A DNA stretch of 11,147 nucleotides from Irineochytrium annulatum (Eukaryota; Chytridiomycota; Chytridiomycetes; Chytridiales; Chytridiaceae): contig JADGJL010001001.1 of NCBI GenBank assembly GCA_027600665.1, forward strand, positions 1 through 11,147, written 5' to 3'. Both the position numbers and the translations under genes were made by a program. Shown here piece by piece: positions 29 to 11,147 of the stretch; position 1 is the stretch's first letter, and every line of letters begins with the position of its first letter. The notes under the pieces were generated by a model. The model saw only the letters and a program-made list of their open reading frames with translations. It did no database searches and was not told the origin of the DNA.

Positions 29-698
29 TGATCTCAACCCACTCGGTCTTGCAAGTCTCGTCGTGTACGACTTCGCCTTGTTCGGCATTTCCCTCGCGAC
101 GGCTACTTACACGACGCTCTCGATCGTGACTTTTTGCCGGCGTCGGTCCGACTTCCTCCGCGTTGTCGGCCTGGCCCATCATAAGTCCACCGCGAGTGGC
201 AGCGTGCCCGGGAAGAGCGTCAACGTCCTTCCGGCGTCGGTCGACAACGAGACGCGATCCCTCGCGTCCACGCCGCACTCCGGTAAAGCATTGGAGCTGG
301 AACAAATGTTCCGACGCGTGATATGCTTCTGCCTGGTAGAGGTAGTGTGCACGGTGCCCTTCGCGGCGTTCAATTTCTACATGGATGCAACGAGCAGGCC
401 CGTAAATGGCTACACGTTGACCGCAGCCGAGCTGGACGACGAGTTATCGGACGTGATTGCATACGAGACAGTGGCCACAGCCGTCCTCATTTTCGCCTGC
501 TTCGGTTGTGTGAGTTGACGAGGCTTTTCTTTTTAATTTACTTCCACGCTTGCTGATGTGATAAAATAGGGAGCGAATGCGATTGCGCGGTATAGGGACC
601 TGTGGAAAAATTGCTTTGGCCGGAATCAGCGGAGCACAAGGCGACATAATGATGGGCCTGAGATGAGCTCCCTGACAGGTGTTACTGTGCCGGCATAA
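29..698 (+). CDS. Ste3-like 7TM receptor, copy 1 (3' part only; exons 3-4)
   Basis: This is the 3' half of a receptor gene cut by the left window edge. Exon 3 is 29-509, after an AG acceptor at 27-28. Intron 3 is 510-569 (GTGAGT...TAG) and exon 4 is 570-698, ending in TAA. The visible protein starts just before TM5 (T|DLNPLGLASLVVYD) and continues through TM5, a CRRRSDFLR cytoplasmic edge and a variable Ser-rich third cytoplasmic loop. TM6 follows with FRRVICF and TVPFAAFNFYMD, then TM7 ending FACFGC, then exon 4 GANAIARYRDLW. In Ste3-type pheromone receptors, TM5 is followed by an RRxxF edge, TM6 carries R-x-M...P, and TM7 runs into FG...A..Y(K/R). The same order occurs here. Exon phases match the three complete copies. 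The tail is only about 42 residues and ends VPA. Exons 1-2 should lie to the left. A pheromone-type GPCR role at the plasma membrane is inferred from family resemblance, not shown. Confidence 0.72.
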
Positions 699-1478
699 AA
701 TATCGCTTCGAAAAGTGCGAGCTTTTCGCGCAACCGCTGAAGAATTGCCCGGCCGATCGAGGTCATTCGGCGAGGTTACATGGACATGTTGGGAAGATTA
801 TGGGACCCAACCACTGCTGGGTTTTCTTTGCAAGTCCTGTCCATAGAATACCACTGATGTCACAAAACAGTAACAACTGGAGCTTCAGGTCCTTAATACA
901 AATCGAACTGAACTTGTACAAAAAAAACTCTGTTTGTGTTCGGCCGGACGTGCCGAGTTCGTTGTCGTAAACCACAGATGCCTACACCACTCCCTGAAAT
1001 TCCTGGGGACGAACGCGACGGTGTGGCTACACGGCGCCGGCGTTAAATATCGGGCTAGCTAGAACGTTGGAATATTTGCCAGTCGTGATTACGACACAAT
1101 TTGTTTGCTAAAATGCTTTTTAGATAATGAAAATGAACTGTTCTCGAACTAACACTTCCTTTCGAATGATAGCGAGACGAAGGCCAGCATACAGGCTGAT
1201 ATTCTATCGTAAATTGACCTAGGCAGGAGCCCATCTGGACCAGGGAGGCTGTGGCCTGGATTCTGCGGATGGGGTAGTGCCGACGACCGCCGGCGGCTCA
1301 CTTAGCCCATTTTCTTGCAGAGAATAAAATCCCTTCGGCCTTCTATCCACACGAAGACACGATCAACGCGATACGCCTAACCGTGTGTATGGGAAATCCT
1401 CACCGGCGGTCAGCATGTAAATCACCACCGACACATAGCTATTCGCAAGCTCGCGGTTACCCCGGGGCCAACGCCTCC
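699..1478. other. Intergenic region between receptor copies 1 and 2, with a 3'-end relic
   Basis: These 780 bases hold no convincing gene. The left edge is the 3' end of copy 1. Around 1005-1055 there is a sequence resembling the 3' end of receptor copy 2, including GCCGGCGTTAAATATCG at 1036-1052, probably a relic of another copy (see findings). Short ATG frames, such as a 25-codon one at 779 and a 22-codon one at 979, do not end in CaaX and match no family I know. An A/T-rich GAATAAAAT stretch near 1322-1330 lies about 150 bp before the copy 2 start and could be a promoter element. No branch-point/acceptor pair suggests an extra 5' exon. Confidence 0.5.
1036..1052 (+). pseudogene. Relic of a receptor gene 3' end
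   Basis: The 17-base stretch GCCGGCGTTAAATATCG is nearly the same as the stop-codon region of copy 1 (689-705, GCCGGCATAAAATATCG) and copy 2 (2702-2718, GCCGGCGTGACATATCG). Resemblance to copy 2 seems to extend roughly 30 bases upstream (GGGGAC...GACGG...TAC.C.GCGCCGGCG). Here the stop codon of the copy 2 frame (TGA) reads TTA, and no open receptor exon lies upstream. I read it as the worn 3' end of a lost or converted receptor copy. A short match could be chance or a shared 3'UTR signal. Confidence 0.35.
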
Positions 1479-2711
1479 ATGTACTCCCTCCTGGCCTTCA
1501 TAGCCGCGACATCGACGCTCCTCTCCCTGGCGGTCGTTTACGCCAACCTATCGTCCCGCTGCCTCAGTCTCCTGATTCTAGCTTCCACGTTGATCTTGCT
1601 TGCCGTCTCGTCAGTGGCGGTCAACGGGGCGTTGAATGTGGCGTGCCCGATGGGGTACGACGGCGTGTATTTCTACCTCTTGGTGGCGGCAGGGAACAGG
1701 ACGACGGAGGGGGACGCGACCGGCCTGGACTTGTCGGAAGACACGGTTGGGCTCGTGGCGCGCTTGCGGCTCGCGAGGGTGAGGCTGTTGATTAAGCTAT
1801 AGCTTCGCGGCCTTACCAACTCCTGCCCTGTGTGTTCGATGTCTAGTCAGCACTCCTGGGCACACTTGGTACCTCGGCGTACACTGCTGCTTTGAGCCTG
1901 GCAATGGACCTGTATCGTCGCGTGAGCAAGCTCGAGGGTCAGGCCGACGGCTACGCTGTGATCCGGGACGTGGGCATTTCCATAATCCTTCCCTTGGTGA
2001 TGGCGGCTCCAATGTTGGTTTGGGATTTTCGAGCAACGTGAGTTAACCCCCCTTGTTTTTACTATCGTGGCGCCGGTATGCTAAGTTGTGGATGGAGAAG
2101 GGGACACAACTTGCTCGGCTACGCGGCCCTCCTCGCGTTCGATGTCGCCCTGTCGGCCGTCTCACTCGCAATAGCGGTCTACACAATGCTGTCCATCGTG
2201 ATTTTCTGCCGGCGCCGGTCTGATTTCCTCCGCCTCGTTGGTCCTCCGGCTTTCATATCTGCAAAAAATATGGTCAGCCACACCGACAACGAGGTTCAGC
2301 CCTTCTCGCCCGCACCACCGCCTCCTACCGGGGCAGCAGCCGAGCTCGATCATCTCTTTCGGCGCGTAATGTGCTTCTGCGCGATCGTGACGACTTGCAC
2401 GGTGCCATACGCGACGTTCAATCTTTACGTGGACGTCTCGAGCACGTCGACAGGCGAGCCCGCAGCCGTTGCTCATCTGAACGATGCTTACTCGGACGTG
2501 ATCATGTACGTCAATGGGATCTCTTCCATTCTGGGTTTTGCCTGCTTTGGTACTGTAAGTACAGATTTGTTCGCGTTCTTTGCTGACAAATGATTAGGGG
2601 GCGAACGCGGTCGCGATGTACAGAGGCCTGTGGAAGACTTGCTGCAACCGGGTTAGGTGGACCCGTGATCGAGGGGGGACAGACAGGACGGGTTATACCG
2701 CGCCGGCGTGA
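1479..2711 (+). CDS. Ste3-like 7TM receptor, copy 2 (four exons, 352 aa)
   Basis: Exons: 1479-1778, 1847-2037, 2101-2554, 2598-2711 (TGA). Introns are 68, 63 and 43 bp at phases 0, 2 and 0. The ATG at 1479 was chosen because the first membrane span begins there, as in copies 3 and 4; an in-frame ATG at 1389 would add 30 hydrophilic residues. The exon 3 start at 2101, not the AG at 2085, gives an ungapped 14-residue match to the other copies and leaves TGCTAAG as branch site. Approximate segments: TM1 2-22; TM2 29-53; extracellular loop with ACPMGYDGVY and NRT sequon (73); TM3 101-123 ending MDLYRRV; TM4 139-160; TM5 168-198 ending CRRRSDF; loop 3; TM6 with TVPYATFNLY; TM7 ending FACFGT; then GANAVAMYRGLW and a short basic tail ending APA. 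The segment order and the TM5, TM6 and post-TM7 motifs fit Ste3 pheromone receptors (class D GPCR). Ligand and G protein are unknown. A different divergent fungal 7TM family is the alternative. Confidence 0.75.
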
Positions 2712-3075
2712 CATATCGCGCCGTTGACTTCAACCTGGCGGCGTGTGTAAATCGAAAAACATAACTGTAAATATGTAGACTCGCTTCTTGGCGGCTAGCT
2801 TAGTAAGCCAGCGCGCGTTTTTGCCTGCTATGAATACAACGCGAAAAACTTCGGACAAAGAAGAGTTAGTAAAGGTTCAAAGGTCCTTAAAAAAAAAGAA
2901 GAGTTCAAAAGCGACGTTGTTGCAGCCATAATCGCGTAAATCTGGAAACCACGTCCCATGCAGATCACTGCTCCTTTGTTGATGGCCGTTGTTGATCCTC
3001 TCTCCCGACCAAGGGCGAATCAGGCAGGAACTGCCCGCTATCTTCCCGCACCGATCCATCGCAGTGCGCAAGATA
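2712..3075. other. Intergenic region between receptor copies 2 and 3
   Basis: These 364 bases hold the 3' end of copy 2 and the presumed promoter and leader of copy 3. The part from about 2740 to 2950 is AT-richer than the genes and has an A9 run near 2888. A 33-codon frame from 2830 (MNTTRKTS...) is Lys-rich, has no CaaX end and looks like chance. I see no clear TATA box, RNA gene or repeat. Confidence 0.5.
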
Positions 3076-4447
3076 ATGCCGCTCTCCGTCACAGCCCCTT
3101 TGGCCGCCGGGACGACTGTCCTTTGCGTCTCGGTAATCTATGGCAACCTCACCTCCCAGTGCCTGGGCCTCCTCGTCCTCGCGGCGGACCTGATGCTGGT
3201 GCCGGTCGTGTCGCTGGTGTTCAACCTGGTGCTGAACGTCGCGTGCCCCACGGGGTACGACGGTGTGTATGTGTACCTCCTGACGGCCGCCAACGCGACG
3301 ACGACGGAGGCGGCGCAGGCGGCCGGCGTGGACATGTCGGAACGGACGGTCGCGCGCGTCGCGGCGATTAACGTATCAAGGGTGAGTTGATGGCTCTGTT
3401 CGCGAGGCCCACTCATCAAGTCCCGATCGGGCCTGCCGGCAGAGCTTTATAACGGACGTGTTCGGGGCCTCCGCGTACACGTCCGTCCTCGCCATGGCCA
3501 TGGACCTCCACCGGCGCGTCGCCCGGCTCGAGGAACAGGCGGCAGGCCATGCGTTCCTTTACGATGTCGGCATCACCATTGCCCTCCCCATAGCCGTGGC
3601 AGTCCTCATGCTCAACTGGGCACTCAACGTTACGTAAGGGAAAGTGCTTGCTTTTGGAAGCCACAGGCTTTAACAAATGTGCATCCCAACCTTCTAGGAA
3701 CCTCAACCCGCTCGCGTTCGCGGGCCTGATCGCGTACGACGCGACCGTGGCGTCTCTTGCGCTCGCCACGGCCGTCTACACGTCGCTGTCGATCGCTTGC
3801 TTTTGCAAACGTCGGTCCGGTTTCCTACACCTCGTTGGCGTCCGATATGGTGCGCTTAAATCCCCGCGGACGTCGATAGGCGGCGGTGCGACCGACAACA
3901 CGGCCGTGCCGCTGACGGACAACGGCGAGGGCTCCCTCCATGCTAAGCCGCCGCTATCACCCGGAGGGCCAGATGGCGCGTCGGATGGGATGGACCACCT
4001 GTTCCGCCGCATGACGTGGTTCTGCATCGTGGCGGTGCTCATCACGGTGCCGTTTGCGATATTCAACATGCACTCGGACATCACGGGCGTTCCCATTTCG
4101 GGTTCGTCGTTCGCCTCGGCCGAGCAGCAGGATGAGGAGTCGGACGTGTTGGTGTACACCTGCGCGACCACGTCCGTCCTCGTTTTCGCATGCTTCGCGA
4201 GCGTGAGTGAATGATCCCTTTCTGTCCTTCTTTTTTTTTTTTTTTGTTCCAACCAATTTTTCTATTCATTTCTGTCGCGGTAGCGTCCGCTGATGAAATT
4301 GAACAGGGGGCGAACGCAATTGCGAGGTACAAGGCTTTGTGGCGGAGATGGTTCGGGGACACCTTGTGCACGCGAGGTGAGGAAAAGCTCGAGAGCAGCG
4401 CGAGGCGGGAGGGGGGGCCGAAGCGGCGGGCGAGCGAGCCGGCGTGA
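3076..4447 (+). CDS. Ste3-like 7TM receptor, copy 3 (four exons, 380 aa)
   Basis: Exons: 3076-3381, 3443-3633, 3698-4202, 4307-4447 (TGA). Introns are 61, 64 and 104 bp at phases 0, 2 and 0; the last carries a T15 run at 4231-4245. The ATG at 3076 starts directly at TM1 (MPLSVTAPLAAG). Approximate segments: TM1 4-22; TM2 30-55; ACPTGYDGVYVYLL with sequon NAT (73-75); TM3 103-125 followed by MDLHRRVARLEEQ; TM4 141-162 with DVGITIALPI; short loop NVTNLNPL; TM5 172-200 with D180 and edge CKRRSGF; a 60-residue cytoplasmic loop rich in Gly, Pro and Ser; TM6 266-290 with FRRM and TVPFAIFNM; TM7 313-334 ending FACFAS; then GANAIARYKALWRRW. TM3, TM4 (D..I...P), TM5 (AVY...RR..F) and TM6 (R.M...P) line up with Ste3 receptors as I know them. 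The usual FG after TM7 is FA here. The tail of ~45 residues is highly basic and ends EPA. Likely a plasma-membrane peptide-pheromone-type GPCR; function inferred. Confidence 0.75.
4231..4245 (+). repeat. T15 homopolymer in intron 3 of copy 3
   Basis: An uninterrupted run of 15 T lies in the last intron of receptor copy 3, which at 104 bp is the longest intron in the array. It may act as a long pyrimidine tract and is prone to length change. The run does not affect the coding frame. Confidence 0.9.
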
Positions 4448-4973
4448 CGTTGGCCTTGTCTGGGATGGTCTCATATATTAGGGGAGCACCTCTGGCAGCT
4501 GATACGCTTCCACTGCTCGACCCTCAGCCTCTCAAGAGAATGAATATACATATACGATTTTCGACCACTAGTGAGCCTTACGCGGCGCCACAACAACAAC
4601 AAAACATGCATGTGTTACGGGTAAGAGCGATCACATTTGTGTTGTATTCGATAAATCGTGTCATCGTTTTCCACGCACCTAGAGCCAGTGCCGGAAGACG
4701 TCAAAGGCGATGCTTTCTTCCCAACTGCTGAGCGCATCGCGAAGTCCATGCCTGCTCGAGTTGCGAAGGTGCAGAACGCCGACTCACGGCTTTTTCATGA
4801 CCATCGCATTTCCAGAAAATAGCGGCCTTCGATTCCGCACAAGAAGGTATCGCTTCGCAGTGCTGTCGAATGCCGTAGGCCGGACGCGGCGCTGGAGTCG
4901 GGGCATAGCGACGTCTGATATGCCTGAGAACCAAGCATTGAATATCTCTTTCCGAGCTCTACGCAGCGATTGC
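4448..4973. other. Convergent 3' region between receptor copies 3 (+) and 4 (-)
   Basis: These 526 bases separate the stop codons of two genes that face each other, so they should hold both terminators and 3'UTRs. A frame of about 88 codons from the ATG at 4465 to 4731 has mixed composition and no recognisable domain; it ends FLPNC, not a CaaX box. Overlapping frames on both strands at 4700-5010 look like chance in GC-rich DNA. ATATACATATAC near 4543-4555 is a plausible 3'-processing A/T element. Nothing firmer is seen. Confidence 0.5.
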
Positions 4974-6524
4974 TCACGAAAGCGAATCCACCATGCTGTC
5001 AATGCTACTTGACCCGGAAGACGTCGCCACCTTCATCGGCATGTGCGGTTGACTCCTGCCTTGACTTGAAGGGTACCTCCATCCTGCTTCGCCCATGTCG
5101 CCCCTGCTCCCCCACCCGTCCTCGCGCTCGAGCTCAATCCCCAGCTCCTTCGCGCGTCGCTCCACGCCCCGCCGCCCGCTTACGTGCCGCCAGATCTCCT
5201 TGTACCGCGCGAGCGCGTTTTCTCCCTGTTGGCATAACTCGTCAAAAACACATAAAGAAAGGTCTACACTTACAGTCCCAAAACAGAGAAATGTGAGTAT
5301 AGAATTCAACCCCGCAATGTACACGATCACTTCATCCGCCACGTCTCCTCCCCCCACGCCATTCTCTATCGTACCCGGTTGCGTAGCCGTGATGTCCGTG
5401 TACAGGTTATAGGTGGTGAAAGGCACCGTTGCCGCGATCTCGATCGCGCAGAAGATGATCATCCTCCGCAGGAGACGATCGAGCGAGGCGTCAGGCGCCT
5501 TGAAGGAAAGACCAGCGCTCACGAGGTGTTCCGGTCGCGGGGCCGACGACGGGCCAGGGCTCGCGAGCTGGGCCGCGGAGGTGTTCGGGCTCGCGACGGA
5601 GGCGCCTGGGCTCGCGATGGGGATGCAGTGGCCGCCGGGGGTGAGACTGCGGCTGCCGACGTCACGGTCGTTGTGGAAGGCCGTGACGCCGGGGGAGAGG
5701 ACGGAGCGGTGTGGGACCGCGGCGGCGGGCGGGGGTCGGTTGCAGAGGTCGAGACCCCCCGCTACGGATCGGGCGAGTAGCGAGCGGCGGTATCGGAAAG
5801 TGATTATGGCGATAAGGGTATAGATGGCCGACGTTATTGAGATGAGCGCGAGCGAACAGTCGATCGTGAGGACGGACCCGTACGCGATGGCGCCCCAGCC
5901 ACTGTTGCCCACAAGCAAACATTATGTAGGTGAAAGAAGACAAAGAGAAAGCGGCTTACGGGATGTGGATCAGATAGAACAGCGAGACGATGCCGAGGAG
6001 TAACGGTATGCCCATCAAGATCGCGATCTGCTGCCCCAGCGCGAGCGACCTATTCTCCAGGATCGTTCGCGATTCCACACGTCTGTACAGATCCATAGCG
6101 ATGCCCAGAGCTGCCGTGTAGGCCGAGATCCCAAACGTGTTCCCGAAAAATCCCTGTCCAGGCAGACAGCACACTTTAGCATAATGCGTCGCAATAATAG
6201 AGAGCGAGACGAGCACCAGCTTACCCGCACGTTCAGCAACACAGAAACCTCCGTGACGGTCCTCGCCCCAAAATCGGTCCCGTTGTTCCCGGCCGCGTCC
6301 ACAGTCCCATTGTACACCTGGTCCAGGTACGAAAACACGCCGTCAGAGCCCCAGGGGTTGAGAAATTCCAGGGCCACGTTCGAGACGAGGTAGGTGGCCT
6401 GCAGGAGCGCGATGTCGGCCGACAGGACTGTCAGCGCCAGGTTGCGCTGCGGCAGGTTGACGTACAAGACCAGCAGAGCGATGAGCGCCGAGGTAACGCT
6501 CGTAAGCAGCGAGAGCGCCAGCAT
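4974..6524 (-). CDS. Ste3-like 7TM receptor, copy 4 (four exons, 457 aa)
   Basis: On the minus strand the exons in order are 6524-6225, 6153-5960, 5901-5274 and 5225-4974 (TGA). Introns are 71, 58 and 48 bp at the same positions and phases (0, 2, 0) as copies 2 and 3. The ATG at 6524-6522 starts at TM1 (MLALSLLTSV). Approximate segments: TM1 2-22; TM2 29-53; loop with GSDGVFSYL and sequons NGT (72, 81); TM3 101-123 then MDLYRRV; TM4 140-163; TM5 167-198 with D179 and edge RYRRS; a cytoplasmic loop of about 100 residues (205-305) rich in Ser, Pro and Ala; TM6 306-332 with LLRRM, CAIEI and TVPFTTYNLY; TM7 354-374 ending FLCFGT; then GENALARYKEIWRHV and an 83-residue Ser-rich tail. Of the four copies its TM6 looks closest to classical Ste3 receptors. 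It has the longest loop 3 and tail, the parts expected to meet G proteins and kinases. Intron 3 is stop-free and a multiple of three, so retention would stay in frame. Confidence 0.75.
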
Positions 6525-7024: not shown

Positions 7025-8810
7025 TCAACCCCCAAACGCCTCCTGCAGAATCTGCACAGCGGTCATGGTCCCATTCCCATTCTCCGCCAAAACCACCACC
7101 CTTTGGATCTGCTCCCCGCTCGCGGGACACCTAATCAAAATGCTATTGCTGACGCTCGGCGCGTACCCGAACACCGCCAGCCTGCTCACGTGGCTCGTGG
7201 CCGAGTAATCGACCTGCGCCGGCCTCTGCTTGCTCGTGACGCCACACACCTCCAAGAACTCGGCGAACGCCGGGTCCTTGATCAACCCGACTTCGGGGTC
7301 CGGGCTGTAGCGGAAGGTGAAGGGCATGGCGAAAGTGACGTTGACGTTGGAGGGGAAGACGAGCGCGGAGGAATTGGAGGCCGTGCCTTGCGCGCCTGTG
7401 CCGATCAGTGGCGTAAACGAGGGGATGTAGTTTGGGTCCGGGTTTGTGGGCGGTGCGCCGATAAACTTGTCGATGCCCAGGGAGGACGGGCTGCGTCCCA
7501 TCATGATCTGGGACTGGTTCACTTTGAGGTAGGCGTTCAGGTTCAACGTGTCGACGGTGAGGTCGTAAGGATTCGGATTGACGACAGAGATATTGAGAAC
7601 AAACTTGATTTCAAGCGTCAAGGTGTTGAGATTTGTAGTGCCGGGTGCGGTGGAGAAGATGAAGGAGGAAGTGTGGTTACCCTGCGCGTTGTGGTCGGAG
7701 AGCAAGGTGAGGGAGAGGACCTGGATTTTGGGGAAGCGGGGCCAATAGATGTATCCGAGGACGGCGAGGGCAATGAGGAGGGGGAGAAGGATGAGGAGCG
7801 TGATGGCGAGCTTGCGTAGGCGACGGTTACGCCGTATGTCACGCTCGGCTTGAGATTCAGGGTCGATTTTAAGCTTGGCGCCCGCCCGGGGTCGGTCGAT
7901 CACTCTGCTATGTGAACAAATGTTCAGTAAAAAACCGCAATCGATCTACTTAAATTTATACAACCCACCTAGAATCTTTTGCGCTCGTGCTAGTGCCAGC
8001 CTTCGTGGCCTTATCCGCCTTCGTCTTGTCCACCTTGGCCTTATCCCCTTTCGCGACAACATCTGAGCTCTCCGTATCGGCAGCCAGCCCCGTTGAAACC
8101 AGTGCAGTCTTGCCCTTCGTGCCTTTACGGCTAGGTGAGGCAGTAATTGCAGCGGCCGGAGAGTCCGGAGCAACCGAGGCCGCCGCCACACCAACAAAAG
8201 CCGCAGTTGCGGCCGCACCAACGCCCTTCTCTGGCACAACAACCGGAGAATTCACCGGCGGCGCCGGCTCCCCGCCGGCCCAAAGCTGATCCCCCTGCTG
8301 CCCCTGCACCGCCTGGCCATGATTCGCAAACGCTTGATTCTGCAAGTATCCGCCCTCCGTCCCCGCCCCGGCGCTCGCCGCGTAGCCATAGCCTCGATAC
8401 CCATACGCCGCCGCGGCCGCTTGCTGCTGATAATACTGGTGATAATACGGATCATACGGCTGCCCAGCATACGGATGCTGTCCGGTGTAGGGATCCTGAC
8501 CCGCATACTGACCATAGGGAGCGTAGGGAGCCTGCTGGCCGTACTGAGCGTAGGCCCCAGCGTACGGGTCTGGGTAGGAGACTTCGCCTTCCGCCGCCGG
8601 GGCCGCATGCGCATCGACACCAGCGGCGGTGGGATCGGGTGCCGTGGGTCCCGAGGGGGTGTAATTGGAAATGACGGGGCTCAGGGCGGCGCTGTCGTCA
8701 TCCGAGGCATGATCGGGGCGAGTGACTGCGGCATCGCAGTCCTGGGGTGTTGGGGAGGATGGAGGGGCGGCGACCTGTGTGCCAGCGGGATCGTGGGCGG
8801 GGGAGGCCAT
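7025..8810 (-). CDS. LEA2-like single-pass membrane protein with Tyr/Gln-rich N-terminus (two exons, 573 aa)
   Basis: Exon 1 is 8810-7969 and exon 2 is 7904-7025 (TGA). The 64-bp intron has a GTGGGT donor and TAGCAG acceptor and splits an Arg codon (AG|A). The start at 8810 is chosen for its GCCGCCATGG context; the open frame upstream has no ATG. Residues 1-280 are predicted disordered: an acidic Ala/Pro/Asp start, a Tyr/Pro/Gln/Gly tract at about 79-147 (repeated PYAGQ, QYG and YGY units), an Ala-rich part and a Lys/Asp-rich stretch at 254-270. Basic RRNRRLRK (305-312) is followed by one membrane span (313-334), so the C-terminus should be luminal or extracellular. The domain at 335-573 has FVLNISVVNPNPYDL (382-396), the NPN-type signature of LEA2 domains, and several N-glycosylation sequons. 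LEA2 domains are proposed lipid-handling folds; yeast vacuolar Vac7 and Tag1 carry them. The exact function here is unknown. Confidence 0.78.
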
Positions 8811-9570
8811 GGCGGCGATCCTGGGGCGATCGATGACGGCGGTGGTTAGGGCCGTTGGGTGGTAATGGGCACCGGTGGCTTGCACCTTTTCTGCATGAAA
8901 CTCCAACCAACAACAGCTTCACGCTTCACGCACATTGCAGTGCAAAGAGTGGAAGGATCTACAGCAACGTGAGACCATATCATCGAAGATCAGGAGCATA
9001 TGGAGGTAAAGGAAAAAAAAAGAGACGGTTGCGTCTGAATAAATGAGCTGTTATGTATTTATTCTCAGATTGAAAAGGATGCGAAACGAAGAGGAATGTG
9101 GAAGCCAGGAAGAAATTCAAAGGGCGGTCTAATCGCCTTTTCATCGTCGCGAGTTGGTATTGCCGCGATGCATAAGCATAGCCCCGAATCCCTGCGAGAC
9201 ACACGCAGTCAGCTGTCGGGCCCAGGTGCCCTTCCGCGACACAGTTGGGAAAAGTTACGCAACCACCGTCGTGATTGTATTTAAGGACGTCCTTGCTGAA
9301 GAAATAAAAAGGCAGGCTTCAAAGTCCGGCACGACAGTGGAAAGCGTTCCCGTTCAGGTGGCAGCTCGATATCAAAGGGTTAATGTAAGTTCGTTGAAGT
9401 GCTGAAGAAATGAGCGAAGCAAGGCCCTCTTTCGTCGCATTTCCGGCCCTAAGAAAAGAGCTGTGAAGTAATGTGACGTGGTTGACTCTCACCTTACAGG
9501 CCTGTCGTCTCCAATTCTCAAACCACCGACAAACAGAGTACCCTCCTCGCTTCACCTCTGCCAACAAGCC
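8811..9570. promoter_or_regulatory. Divergent promoter region of the LEA2-like gene (-) and the 246-aa gene (+)
   Basis: The two flanking genes point away from each other, so these 760 bases should hold both promoters and 5'UTRs. For the + gene, TATTTAAG at 9278-9285 resembles a TATA box. A probable 5'UTR intron follows (9385-9499, GTAAGT donor, TTACAG acceptor), then a leader to the ATG at 9571. For the - gene I see no clear TATA box; the stretch 8811-8900 stays open in the reading frame but lacks ATG. Short frames within 9096-9405 on + are not supported. Confidence 0.5.
9385..9499 (+). other. Probable 5'UTR intron of the 246-aa gene
   Basis: GTAAGT at 9385 and TTACAG ending at 9499 make a good splice pair enclosing 115 bases, with TTGAC near 9482 as a possible branch site. 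It lies 71 bases before the chosen ATG and downstream of the TATA-like TATTTAAG at 9278. Joining the exons does not create a longer in-frame start for the 246-aa protein, so I place the intron in the untranslated leader. Confidence 0.5.
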
Positions 9571-10311
9571 ATGGTCAACCTTTACAAGGCGCTCATGCCG
9601 TCCCTCATAAAGGATCAGAAGCGGCGGGATCGACGGCGGGCGAGGCGGGCGAGGGAGGATCGGGGTGACGTGGACGAGACCAGGATGGAGGATTACCATG
9701 ATGAGGAGGACGGGGACGATCTCCACGAGCATGCGGTTGACGCTGCAGCGGCTGCTGAGCCGCCGGCGTATGATCATGCTGCGGCTTGTGCCGTGAGAGA
9801 ACGACCGATCGACACAAGGCCGATCGATCAGCGGGGGATTGTACACCAGCAAGGAACGGGAATCGAACACCACATCGTCATGGAACAGCAGCATGCAGTC
9901 GAACAGCAGCTTGTGACGGATCTGCCGGGCGCAAACCCGTTCGCGGACCCAGTGGCGGAACAGCCAACAGCACATCATACCGCTGCCACTGCCCAGGCCG
10001 CTCAGCCAGCAGCAGAACAGCCCGTCGCCGTCTCCCCACCCGTCATGGACCATGCGCGGGCCGAGCAGATCGCGGAAATCATCACCTTTGACGTCGAAGG
10101 GGAGGAGCTGGAGCCGACGATCGAACCCAAGGTAGAGGAGGGACGAGCGGTGATGGAGGGGGCGGTGTTAGTGATCGATGGGGCCCTATTACCTGCACCG
10201 GTGGCGCCGACGAGAAAGGCGTCGGTGGCACCCGCCGTCGCGGCGGAGCTAAAGGAGGTCGTGGAGGTGACCCAGATGCTCGTTACGGAAGAGGGAGAGC
10301 GGAAGGATTAG
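9571..10311 (+). CDS. Unrecognised 246-aa hydrophilic protein with PPxY and NPF motifs
   Basis: The start at 9571 has the context AAGCCATGG and is the first ATG after a probable 5'UTR intron (9385-9499). I do not recognise the family. Visible parts: a short amphipathic start (MVNLYKALMPSL), a strongly basic stretch at 17-32 (KRRDRRRARRARED), an acidic Asp/Glu/His patch at 34-54 and an Ala/Gln/His-rich middle at 55-160. A more regular acidic C-terminal part (161-246) contains ITFDVEGEELEP and Val-rich segments. PPAY at 64-67 fits the PPxY motif bound by WW domains of Rsp5/Nedd4-type ubiquitin ligases. NPF at 122-124 fits the motif bound by EH-domain endocytic proteins. There is no signal peptide or membrane span. 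A trafficking adaptor is one guess; single short motifs in a low-complexity protein are weak evidence. It may also be a shortened subtelomeric gene. It is the last gene before the telomere. Confidence 0.6.
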   Translation: MVNLYKALMPSLIKDQKRRDRRRARRAREDRGDVDETRMEDYHDEEDGDDLHEHAVDAAAAAEPPAYDHAAACAVRERPIDTRPIDQRGIVHQQGTGIEHHIVMEQQHAVEQQLVTDLPGANPFADPVAEQPTAHHTAATAQAAQPAAEQPVAVSPPVMDHARAEQIAEIITFDVEGEELEPTIEPKVEEGRAVMEGAVLVIDGALLPAPVAPTRKASVAPAVAAELKEVVEVTQMLVTEEGERKD

Positions 10312-10805: not shown

Positions 10806-11147
10806 CTTAGGGTTAGGGTTACAAGGCTCGTAACCCACACAGGGTTTAGGGTTAGGGTTAAGGTTACTTAAGGTAGGGTTAGGGTTAGGATTAGGGTTAA
10901 GGTTAAGGCTAGGGTTAAGGTTAAGGTTAGGGTTAGGGTTAGGGTTAAGGTTAAGGTTAAGGTTAAGTAAGGGTTAAGGTTAAGGGTAAGGGTTAGGGTT
11001 ACGGTTAAGGTTAGAGTTAGGGTTAAGGTTAGGGTTAAGGTTAGGGTTAGGGTTAGGGTTAAGCTTAGGGTTAGGGTTAGGGTTAAGGTTAAGGTTAGGG
11101 TTAGGGTCAGGGTTAGGGTTAGGGTTAGGGTTAGGGTTAGGGTTAGG
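10806..11147 (+). repeat. Telomeric repeat tract (TTAGGG with TTAAGG variants)
   Basis: The tract is tandem TTAGGG with the G-rich strand running 5' to 3' out of the window, the correct orientation for a right chromosome end. The inner part is degenerate: TTAAGG units are mixed with TTAGGG, with rarer forms (TTAGGA, TTAGAG, GTTACGG, GTCAGGG) and a non-telomeric break at about 10820-10845. The last ~40 bases are clean TTAGGG and the window ends mid-repeat. This matches a proximal degenerate zone followed by telomerase-maintained repeats. An internal telomeric block at a contig break cannot be excluded. Confidence 0.93.

What the first reader, a model, noticed from the sequence alone, without database searches (positions are those of the whole stretch)
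29..6524. Subtelomeric array of four divergent Ste3-like receptor genes
Four paralogous seven-TM genes sit within 6.5 kb near a chromosome end. All have the TM order and key motifs of Ste3 pheromone receptors (TM3 MDLYRRV, TM4 D..I...P, TM5 AVY..L...F..RR, TM6 RRM...TVP, post-TM7 GANAIARYK). Basidiomycetes carry Ste3 receptors at mating loci plus non-mating Ste3-like genes. A subtelomeric expansion with fast-diverging loops suggests peptide sensing outside mating, or a receptor reservoir. The motif comparison is from memory.
Basis: partly seen in the sequence, partly recalled or inferred. Interest (0 to 1): 0.8.

Follow-up and report, generated by a model that had tools for sequence, protein, structure and literature searches.

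The report
Ste3-like receptor gene array in chytrid
Near one chromosome end of a chytrid (a fungus of a swimming-spore group) lies a row of four related genes for membrane receptors that share ancestry with the yeast mating-pheromone receptor Ste3, part of a larger scattered set in the same genome; this matters because chytrids have been reported to lack such receptors.

Summary
In detail: four paralogous 7TM genes lie at 29-6524, with conserved intron sites; one (g1) is cut by the contig start, three are complete (352/353, 380 and 457 aa). Telomere-type repeats (10809-11147) end the contig. The host is not a basidiomycete: two window proteins are deposited as Irineochytrium annulatum, a chytrid. 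All 7 array copies scanned match Pfam STE3 (best E 1e-9), but of the window genes only g1 passes the cut-off; 0 of 7 reversed sequences match STE3. Profile comparison with three dikaryan Ste3 proteins gives E 2e-10 (12 relatives: 6e-13), against 1.5e-4 for the best control. At least 15 such loci lie on 7 contigs, some broken. Two close pairs show dN/dS near 0.4. Array members share a long ECL1 with a conserved N-glycosylation site and lack, at the aligned positions, the Cys pair of canonical Ste3; three dispersed relatives keep it. Best reading: a divergent, expanded Ste3-related receptor family, probably chemosensory; ligand unknown, no convincing pheromone gene. Folding failed (pLDDT 34 and 37); low-sensitivity searches found no relative outside this species. 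Papers disagree on Ste3 in chytrids, so the novelty is the expansion, the anatomy and detection below Pfam's threshold.

The parts
29..509 (+). g1, third coding exon equivalent (TM5, ICL3, TM6, ECL3, TM7); 5' part of the gene lies beyond the contig start
   Evidence: g1 STE3 38.6 bits, E 9.8e-10, over the cut-off of 29.2
570..698 (+). g1, last exon (post-TM7 segment and tail, ends ..SSLTGVTVPA)
1479..1778 (+). g2 exon 1 (TM1, TM2, ECL1 with sequon NRT)
1847..2037 (+). g2 exon 2 (TM3, ICL2, TM4)
2101..2554 (+). g2 exon 3 (TM5 to TM7); my runs used an acceptor 3 nt earlier (2098), the deposited protein starts here
   Evidence: g2 STE3 21.2 bits, E 1.9e-4
2598..2711 (+). g2 exon 4 (post-TM7 segment, tail ..DRTGYTAPA, stop)
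   Evidence: absent from the deposited fused protein P0001
3076..3381 (+). g3 exon 1 (TM1, TM2, ECL1 with sequon NAT)
3443..3633 (+). g3 exon 2 (TM3, ICL2, TM4)
3698..4202 (+). g3 exon 3 (TM5 to TM7)
   Evidence: g3 STE3 20.9 bits, E 2.3e-4
4307..4447 (+). g3 exon 4 (post-TM7 segment GANAIARYK, tail ..RRASEPA, stop)
6225..6524 (-). g4 exon 1 (TM1, TM2, ECL1 with two NGT sequons)
5960..6153 (-). g4 exon 2 (TM3, ICL2, TM4)
5274..5901 (-). g4 exon 3 (TM5, long ICL3, TM6, TM7)
   Evidence: g4 STE3 18.0 bits, E 0.0018
4974..5225 (-). g4 exon 4 (post-TM7 segment GENALARYK, long tail, stop)
10809..11147 (+). telomere-type repeat array, TTAGGG mixed with TTAAGG, at the end of the contig

Best explanation
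The four genes are a tandem array of Ste3-related (class D-like) seven-transmembrane receptors in the chytrid Irineochytrium annulatum, one part of a dispersed family of at least 15 loci with intact, broken and partial copies, as birth and death would leave (shown by sequence). They most likely act as G-protein-coupled chemoreceptors: N terminus and the glycosylated ECL1 outside, basic start of ICL3 and post-TM7 segment inside, passing a signal to one of the several heterotrimeric G proteins of the cell (inferred from homology and topology). Their ligands are probably several different peptide, lipopeptide or other hydrophobic cues met by zoospores or thalli, not a single mating pheromone (inferred from copy number, divergence and the absence of a convincing linked pheromone gene).
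For: Homology to Ste3: 7 of 7 array members match Pfam STE3 at E<=1, best 9.8e-10; a hand-made family consensus 3.8e-9; 0 of 7 reversed sequences match STE3. hhalign of 7 array members against three dikaryan Ste3 sequences: E 2.1e-10 for this single comparison, over 274 columns; with 12 relatives 6.4e-13, reversed 0.78; reversed array profile, Ste2, rhodopsin, cAR1 and 20 block shuffles reach at best 1.5e-4. Five dispersed relatives against the array 2.6e-25, against Ste3 3.6e-7. Topology: seven hydrophobic regions, and an ECL1 sequon in 6 of the 6 array members that cover it. Constraint: dN/dS 0.45 (g3/R7) and 0.38 (R8/R9), with TM7 and post-TM7 dN 0.07 against dS 0.58 in g3/R7. Expansion and decay: 15 loci; R7 has an inverted exon-1 piece, R5 a broken frame and R6 is a fragment. 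Four G-alpha loci over Pfam's cut-off in the genome.
Against: Only g1 and the consensus pass Pfam's curated cut-off; g2, g3 and g4 are at 18-21 bits against 29.2. Of three dispersed relatives scanned two have no STE3 match and one E 0.041. Against single references the array profile is uneven: yeast Ste3 2e-7, Pra1 1.4e-4, Map3 0.074, the last two no better than some controls; C377 alone against the Ste3 profile gives 0.0053. The array members lack, at the aligned positions, the two cysteines invariant in the three reference sequences. The structure models are unusable. R7, used in one dN/dS pair, is itself broken. No expression, ligand or coupling data. Three protein-database searches found no relative outside this species.
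Confidence: 0.7

Rival explanations
1. They are true mating-pheromone receptors: a chytrid equivalent of the multi-receptor B mating loci of mushrooms, each copy recognising a lipidated peptide pheromone.
For: Homology to Ste3; clustered, divergent copies are also a feature of multi-receptor mating loci of Agaricomycetes (recalled). Kiss et al. 2019 state that, of the GPCR families found in fungi, only mating pheromone receptors are conserved across the kingdom (PMC6733946, passages).
Against: No convincing CaaX pheromone precursor among 264 small unspliced ORFs of the window and contig C600; 3 fitted the loose pattern. No ICMT (Ste14-type methyltransferase) domain match in the genome at E<=0.01, though introns may hide it. 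Many divergent loci on several contigs fit a repertoire better than one locus.
Confidence: 0.2
2. A lineage-specific 7TM family that is only superficially Ste3-like and works in another way (transporter or channel).
For: Low individual Pfam scores; uneven matches to single references; loss of the canonical cysteines in the array; no confident model.
Against: All 7 array members pick Pfam STE3 and no other 7TM family at E<=1; the profile match spans the protein from TM1 to the post-TM7 segment and strengthens when more distant relatives are added; three dispersed relatives keep the Cys pair by my reading of the sequences.
Confidence: 0.08
3. The array is mostly decaying duplicates kept near a telomere, with little function.
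For: Three of five C600 copies are broken or partial; contig C346 carries a second copy with stops; near-telomere location.
Against: g2, g3, g4, R8 and R9 have intact frames and GT-AG introns at conserved sites, and the two closest pairs have dN/dS near 0.4.
Confidence: 0.1
4. The contig is a contaminant from another eukaryote.
For: The assembly is contaminated: contig C1 looks bacterial.
Against: C5, C600 and the five contigs of the dispersed loci have tetranucleotide correlations of 0.73-0.89 to a reference mean, against 0.78-0.90 for eight other contigs and 0.43 for C1, which was itself part of that mean; three contig ends share the same TTAGGG/TTAAGG mixture. The samples are short (4-18 kb), so this is weak.
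Confidence: 0.04

Closest known systems
Ste3 / pheromone A receptor family (Pfam PF02076; S. cerevisiae Ste3, S. pombe Map3, U. maydis Pra1)
   Same: Seven TMs; basic ICL3 start after TM5; TM6 proline after a hydrophobic residue; FGxGxxA-type post-TM7 motif (clear in yeast Ste3, weaker in Pra1, not in Map3); profile match along the whole receptor part.
   Different: Chytrid host; long ECL1 with a conserved sequon; the TM3-start and ECL2 cysteines invariant in the three reference sequences are absent from the array at those positions; most members fall below Pfam's cut-off; no convincing linked pheromone gene.
Non-mating Ste3-like receptors and multi-receptor B mating loci of Agaricomycetes (recalled; [quoted passage not shown]
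   Same: Several divergent Ste3-type receptors in one genome, clustered.
   Different: Different phylum; the family is one side of a branch in the tree made here, which held only three dikaryan sequences, all on long branches, none from Agaricomycetes.
Ste3 orthologue of Rhizophagus irregularis (PMC3834313, passages)
   Same: Ste3-type receptor outside Dikarya, no pheromone gene found.
   Different: One copy there; at least 15 loci here. Not compared by sequence.

Membership tests
STE3 (PF02076) | Profile score over the curated cut-off (29.2 bits) | tested here: inconclusive
   g1 38.6 and a hand-made family consensus 36.6 pass; g2 21.2, g3 20.9, g4 18.0 do not. The database's own precomputed PF02076.23 mark is on P0001, the g2+g3 fusion, which scores 26.0 with version 21 here.
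STE3 (PF02076) | Full-length profile similarity to known Ste3 receptors, beyond controls | tested here: met
   E 2.1e-10, 6.4e-13 with 12 relatives; controls at best 1.5e-4. References typed from recall; Pfam STE3 matches 3 of 3. Against single references only yeast Ste3 is clear (2e-7; Pra1 1.4e-4, Map3 0.074).
STE3 (PF02076) | Seven transmembrane helices, N terminus outside | tested here: met
   Twelve overlapping hydrophobic stretches grouped into seven regions; ECL1 sequon in 6 of 6 array members that cover it. Orientation is inferred.
STE3 (PF02076) | TM6 proline and post-TM7 FGxGxxA-type motif | tested here: met
   TM6 Pro in 7 of 7 array members; post-TM7 motif conserved in the array and aligned with yeast Ste3.
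Canonical dikaryan Ste3 | Cysteine at the start of TM3 and cysteine in ECL2 (invariant in the three references; not a stated criterion of the Pfam family) | tested here: not met
   Absent at those positions in the array members that cover them (5 of 6 have an own 'ACP' cysteine in ECL1, and R9 one near the TM3 start); present in dispersed relatives C390, C235 and C444 by my reading (the ECL2 column is not shown).
Class D GPCR fold | Predicted fold like Ste2/Ste3 | tested here: inconclusive
   Two AlphaFold2 models, mean pLDDT 34.4 and 36.5; no fold search was run on them.
Mating-type (B-type) receptor locus | Linked lipopeptide pheromone precursor gene (CaaX) | tested here: not met
   3 of 264 small unspliced ORFs in the window and C600 fit a loose CaaX pattern, none convincing.
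Pheromone receptor | Binds a lipid-modified peptide and drives mating | not testable with these tools
   Needs experiment.

The most novel reading that the evidence does not exclude
Chytrids carry a Ste3-derived chemoreceptor repertoire, largely invisible to the standard Pfam screen, that serves general sensing of zoospores. Four of the seven array members end in TG-x-T-x-P-(A/V) and a fifth in SEPA; g4 and the broken R7 do not. This recalls the C-terminal VxPx/QVAPA signal that sends rhodopsin to the outer segment, a modified cilium (PMC2880002, passages), although the V is not conserved here. If the tail is a flagellar targeting signal, Ste3-type receptors began as ciliary chemosensors and were taken over for mating after the flagellum was lost.
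Probability: 0.13. Interest if true: 0.85.

Novelty: new variant of a known kind. Interest (0 to 1): 0.55.

Why it matters
[quoted passage not shown] A 2019 study calls mating pheromone receptors conserved across the kingdom (PMC6733946, passages), a 2023 study lists Ste3 among early fungal novelties (PMC10406608, passages), and a 2025 survey finds STE3-like receptors predominantly in Ascomycota and Basidiomycota (PMC12842992, passages). The sequences here suggest one possible reason for the conflict: genuine relatives that lie below the profile's cut-off. They give concrete genes with which to ask what Ste3-type receptors sense in flagellated fungi. A comparative study of chytrids leaves their sexual cycle unresolved (PMC6572847, passages).

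Tried and rejected
Basidiomycete origin: rejected; the deposited proteins are from Irineochytrium annulatum.

Structure route: two AlphaFold2 jobs on the deposited proteins with small alignments gave mean pLDDT 34.4 and 36.5; fold searches were not run because such models give meaningless matches.

Solved structures by sequence: nothing for g3; the array profile matched only four aliphatic amidase sequences, at E 0.055 or worse, judged chance; nothing for the Ste3 reference profile.

Relatives in other organisms: three protein-database searches returned the two window proteins, one of them and nothing. Sensitivity was poor: only the 7,999 candidates sharing most words were scored, and none of the three searches returned the C600 copies of the same genome, perhaps because they are not annotated as such. 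This is not evidence of absence.

Weak own-genome matches dropped from the census: C880:892-1044 (E 0.25; fetched, not examined) and C332:13582-13800 (E 0.35; its ORFs, did not look like a receptor).

STE2 in the genome: no match, but the control genomes were silent too. ICMT: no match at E<=0.01, introns may hide it. Rfam and tRNA scans of the window: nothing. Other papers seen in passages that did not help: PMC5705715 (Mucoromycotina lack the dikaryan pheromone recognition genes), PMC8778642, PMC12941744.

A statement that such an array in a chytrid was not found in print rests on searches in a library of open-licence papers only, read as listings and passages; supplementary tables were not read.
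Full report
What is there. The window is the stretch 1-11147 of contig C5 of a 26.9-Mb assembly with 1,082 contigs. Splicing by GT-AG rules gives four paralogous genes: g1 (29-698, cut by the contig start), g2 (1479-2711) and g3 (3076-4447) on the + strand and g4 (6524-4974) on the - strand. The three introns sit at the same places in g2, g3, g4 and in R8 and R9 on a second contig. For g2 the deposited protein uses an acceptor 3 nt later than mine (2101, not 2098), which fits the paralogues better. The contig ends in TTAGGG repeats mixed with TTAAGG.

Whose genome. The protein search returned two deposited proteins of Irineochytrium annulatum whose longest contig is 11,147 bases, the size of this window; the species is a chytrid of the order Chytridiales. 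The deposited models are faulty by my splicing: HK101_000171 fuses g2, without its last exon, to g3, and HK101_000172 lacks 17 residues of TM7 of g4 (one search compared).

Are they Ste3 relatives? Pfam STE3 is the only receptor family matched at E<=1. All 7 array members scanned (four in the window, R7, R8 and R9 on contig C600) match, the best at 9.8e-10. Of the reversed sequences 0 of 7 match STE3 at E<=10; reversed g1 matched another 7TM family, 7tm_6, at E 0.045. In the window only g1 passes the curated cut-off. A profile of the seven against three dikaryan Ste3 receptors (typed from recall; 3 of 3 match Pfam STE3) gives hhalign E 2.1e-10, an E-value for this one comparison, over 274 columns from TM1 to the post-TM7 segment. 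Controls (reversed profile, Ste2, rhodopsin, cAR1, 20 block shuffles) reach at best 1.5e-4; the three best shuffles all matched the TM7/post-TM7 stretch of Ste3. Against single Ste3 sequences the result is uneven: yeast Ste3 2e-7, Pra1 1.4e-4, Map3 0.074. Adding five more distant relatives from the same genome raises the match to 6.4e-13; the five alone give 3.6e-7 against Ste3 and 2.6e-25 against the array; C377 alone against Ste3 gives only 0.0053.

The family in the genome. Searches with g3, g4, C377, C390, R9 and C346 find 15 loci on 7 contigs: 4 on C5, 5 on C600, 2 on C346, and one each on C377, C390, C235 and C444; these are lower bounds, and two weaker matches (C880, C332) were left out. 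On C600, R8 and R9 are intact, R7 has about 155 bp of exon 1 inverted, R5 has a frame break and an additional 43-nt GT-AG intron, and R6 is a fragment. In the tree the seven array copies used group together (86/93) and the five dispersed ones group together (90/90), both below the tool's mark for firm support; canonical Ste3 lies on the far side of a 100/99 branch. The tool warns that the canonical branches are long and that their joins may be false; the root is unknown. g3 pairs firmly with R7 of the other array (100/100), so duplications predate the present arrangement or copies moved between the arrays.

Anatomy. The family-average hydropathy plot shows 12 overlapping stretches that I group into seven regions. 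Between TM2 and TM3 lies a long ECL1 of about 45 residues with an N-glycosylation sequon in 6 of the 6 array members that cover it. The cysteines at the TM3 start and in ECL2 that are invariant in the three reference Ste3 sequences are missing from the array at those positions but present in C390, C235 and C444 by my reading. In this respect the dispersed branch is closer to the canonical form, although it scores less with Pfam: C377 and C390 no match, C235 E 0.041; C346 and C444 were not scanned. Four of 7 array members end in TG-x-T-x-P-(A/V), a fifth in SEPA, two otherwise.

Selection. Nei-Gojobori counts give dN 0.23 / dS 0.51 for g3/R7 and 0.29 / 0.77 for R8/R9; the other 19 pairs have dS from 0.84 to 1.82 and are less reliable. 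R7 is a broken copy, so that pair includes some time without constraint. TM7 with the post-TM7 segment is the most constrained stretch in g3/R7 (0.07 / 0.58). The tail and ICL3 change fastest in g3/R7, ECL3 in R8/R9; the stretch with ECL1 is slow in both. 'Fast-diverging loops' is only partly right.

How it probably works. By homology and topology these are GPCRs; the genome has four G-alpha loci over Pfam's cut-off and some weaker matches. The ligand is unknown. The number, spread and turnover of copies, and the lack of a convincing CaaX precursor among 264 small ORFs, favour a chemosensory repertoire over a single mating receptor, but do not exclude mating. That step is inference.

Location. 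C5 is one of three contigs in which an exact (TTAGGG)4 was found, each time at a contig end; 10 kb next to each of the other two ends gave no match to the family. C600 has no telomere repeat. 'Subtelomeric' thus applies to this array alone.

Contamination. Contig C1 looks bacterial. C5, C600 and the other family contigs have a composition in the range of, or slightly below, other contigs (0.73-0.89 against 0.78-0.90), and C5 shares its telomere type with C165 and C206.

Literature. All papers were seen as search listings or passages only. Krishnan et al. 2012 could not find reliable Ste2, Ste3 or Git3 in Chytridiomycota (PMC3251606). Kiss et al. 2019 call mating pheromone receptors conserved across the kingdom (PMC6733946); a 2023 study lists Ste3 among core fungal novelties (PMC10406608); a 2025 survey puts STE3-like receptors predominantly in Ascomycota and Basidiomycota (PMC12842992). 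First-author names are recalled. The presence of a Ste3-type receptor in a chytrid may therefore already be implicit in orthogroup tables that I could not read; the arrays, the anatomy and the sub-threshold detection were not found in print by searches.

Limits. No usable structure, no relatives found outside the species (low sensitivity), no expression data, gene models without transcripts.

Noticed in passing
window 1479-4447 and 4974-6524: The deposited proteins look mis-modelled: HK101_000171 fuses g2 and g3, and HK101_000172 lacks 17 residues of TM7 of g4.
   Followed up: yes
contig C600, 8000-8175 (L022): Copy R7 has about 155 bp of its first exon inverted in place; real rearrangement or assembly error not settled.
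   Followed up: partly
contig C600, 5069-5111 and about 6200 (L022): Copy R5 has an extra 43-nt GT-AG intron in exon 1, at a place where the paralogues align without a gap, and a broken frame in TM6.
   Followed up: partly
contigs C390, C235, C444 (L041, L040, L044): Dispersed relatives keep the Ste3-type cysteine pair that the arrays lack, yet C390 and C235 score nothing or little with Pfam STE3; C444 was not scanned.
   Followed up: partly
contig C346, 20058-20728 (L043): A second, degenerate copy beside the receptor gene of C346.
   Followed up: no
contig C1 (L051, first 10 kb): A 487,796-bp contig whose first 10 kb look bacterial: GC 0.46, tetranucleotide correlation 0.43, nearly full of long ORFs; a likely contaminant.
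   Followed up: partly
window 10809-11147; C165 right end; C206 left end: Telomere arrays mix TTAGGG with TTAAGG units at all three contig ends found.
   Followed up: partly
window 7025-8860 (-) and 9571-10308 (+): Two further genes near the telomere without a Pfam family over cut-off: one with a Tyr/Pro/Gln-rich N part and one hydrophobic stretch, one acidic and Gln-containing.
   Followed up: no
whole genome: No ICMT (PF04140) match at E<=0.01, although lipopeptide pheromones of Dikarya need this enzyme (recalled); introns may hide it.
   Followed up: no
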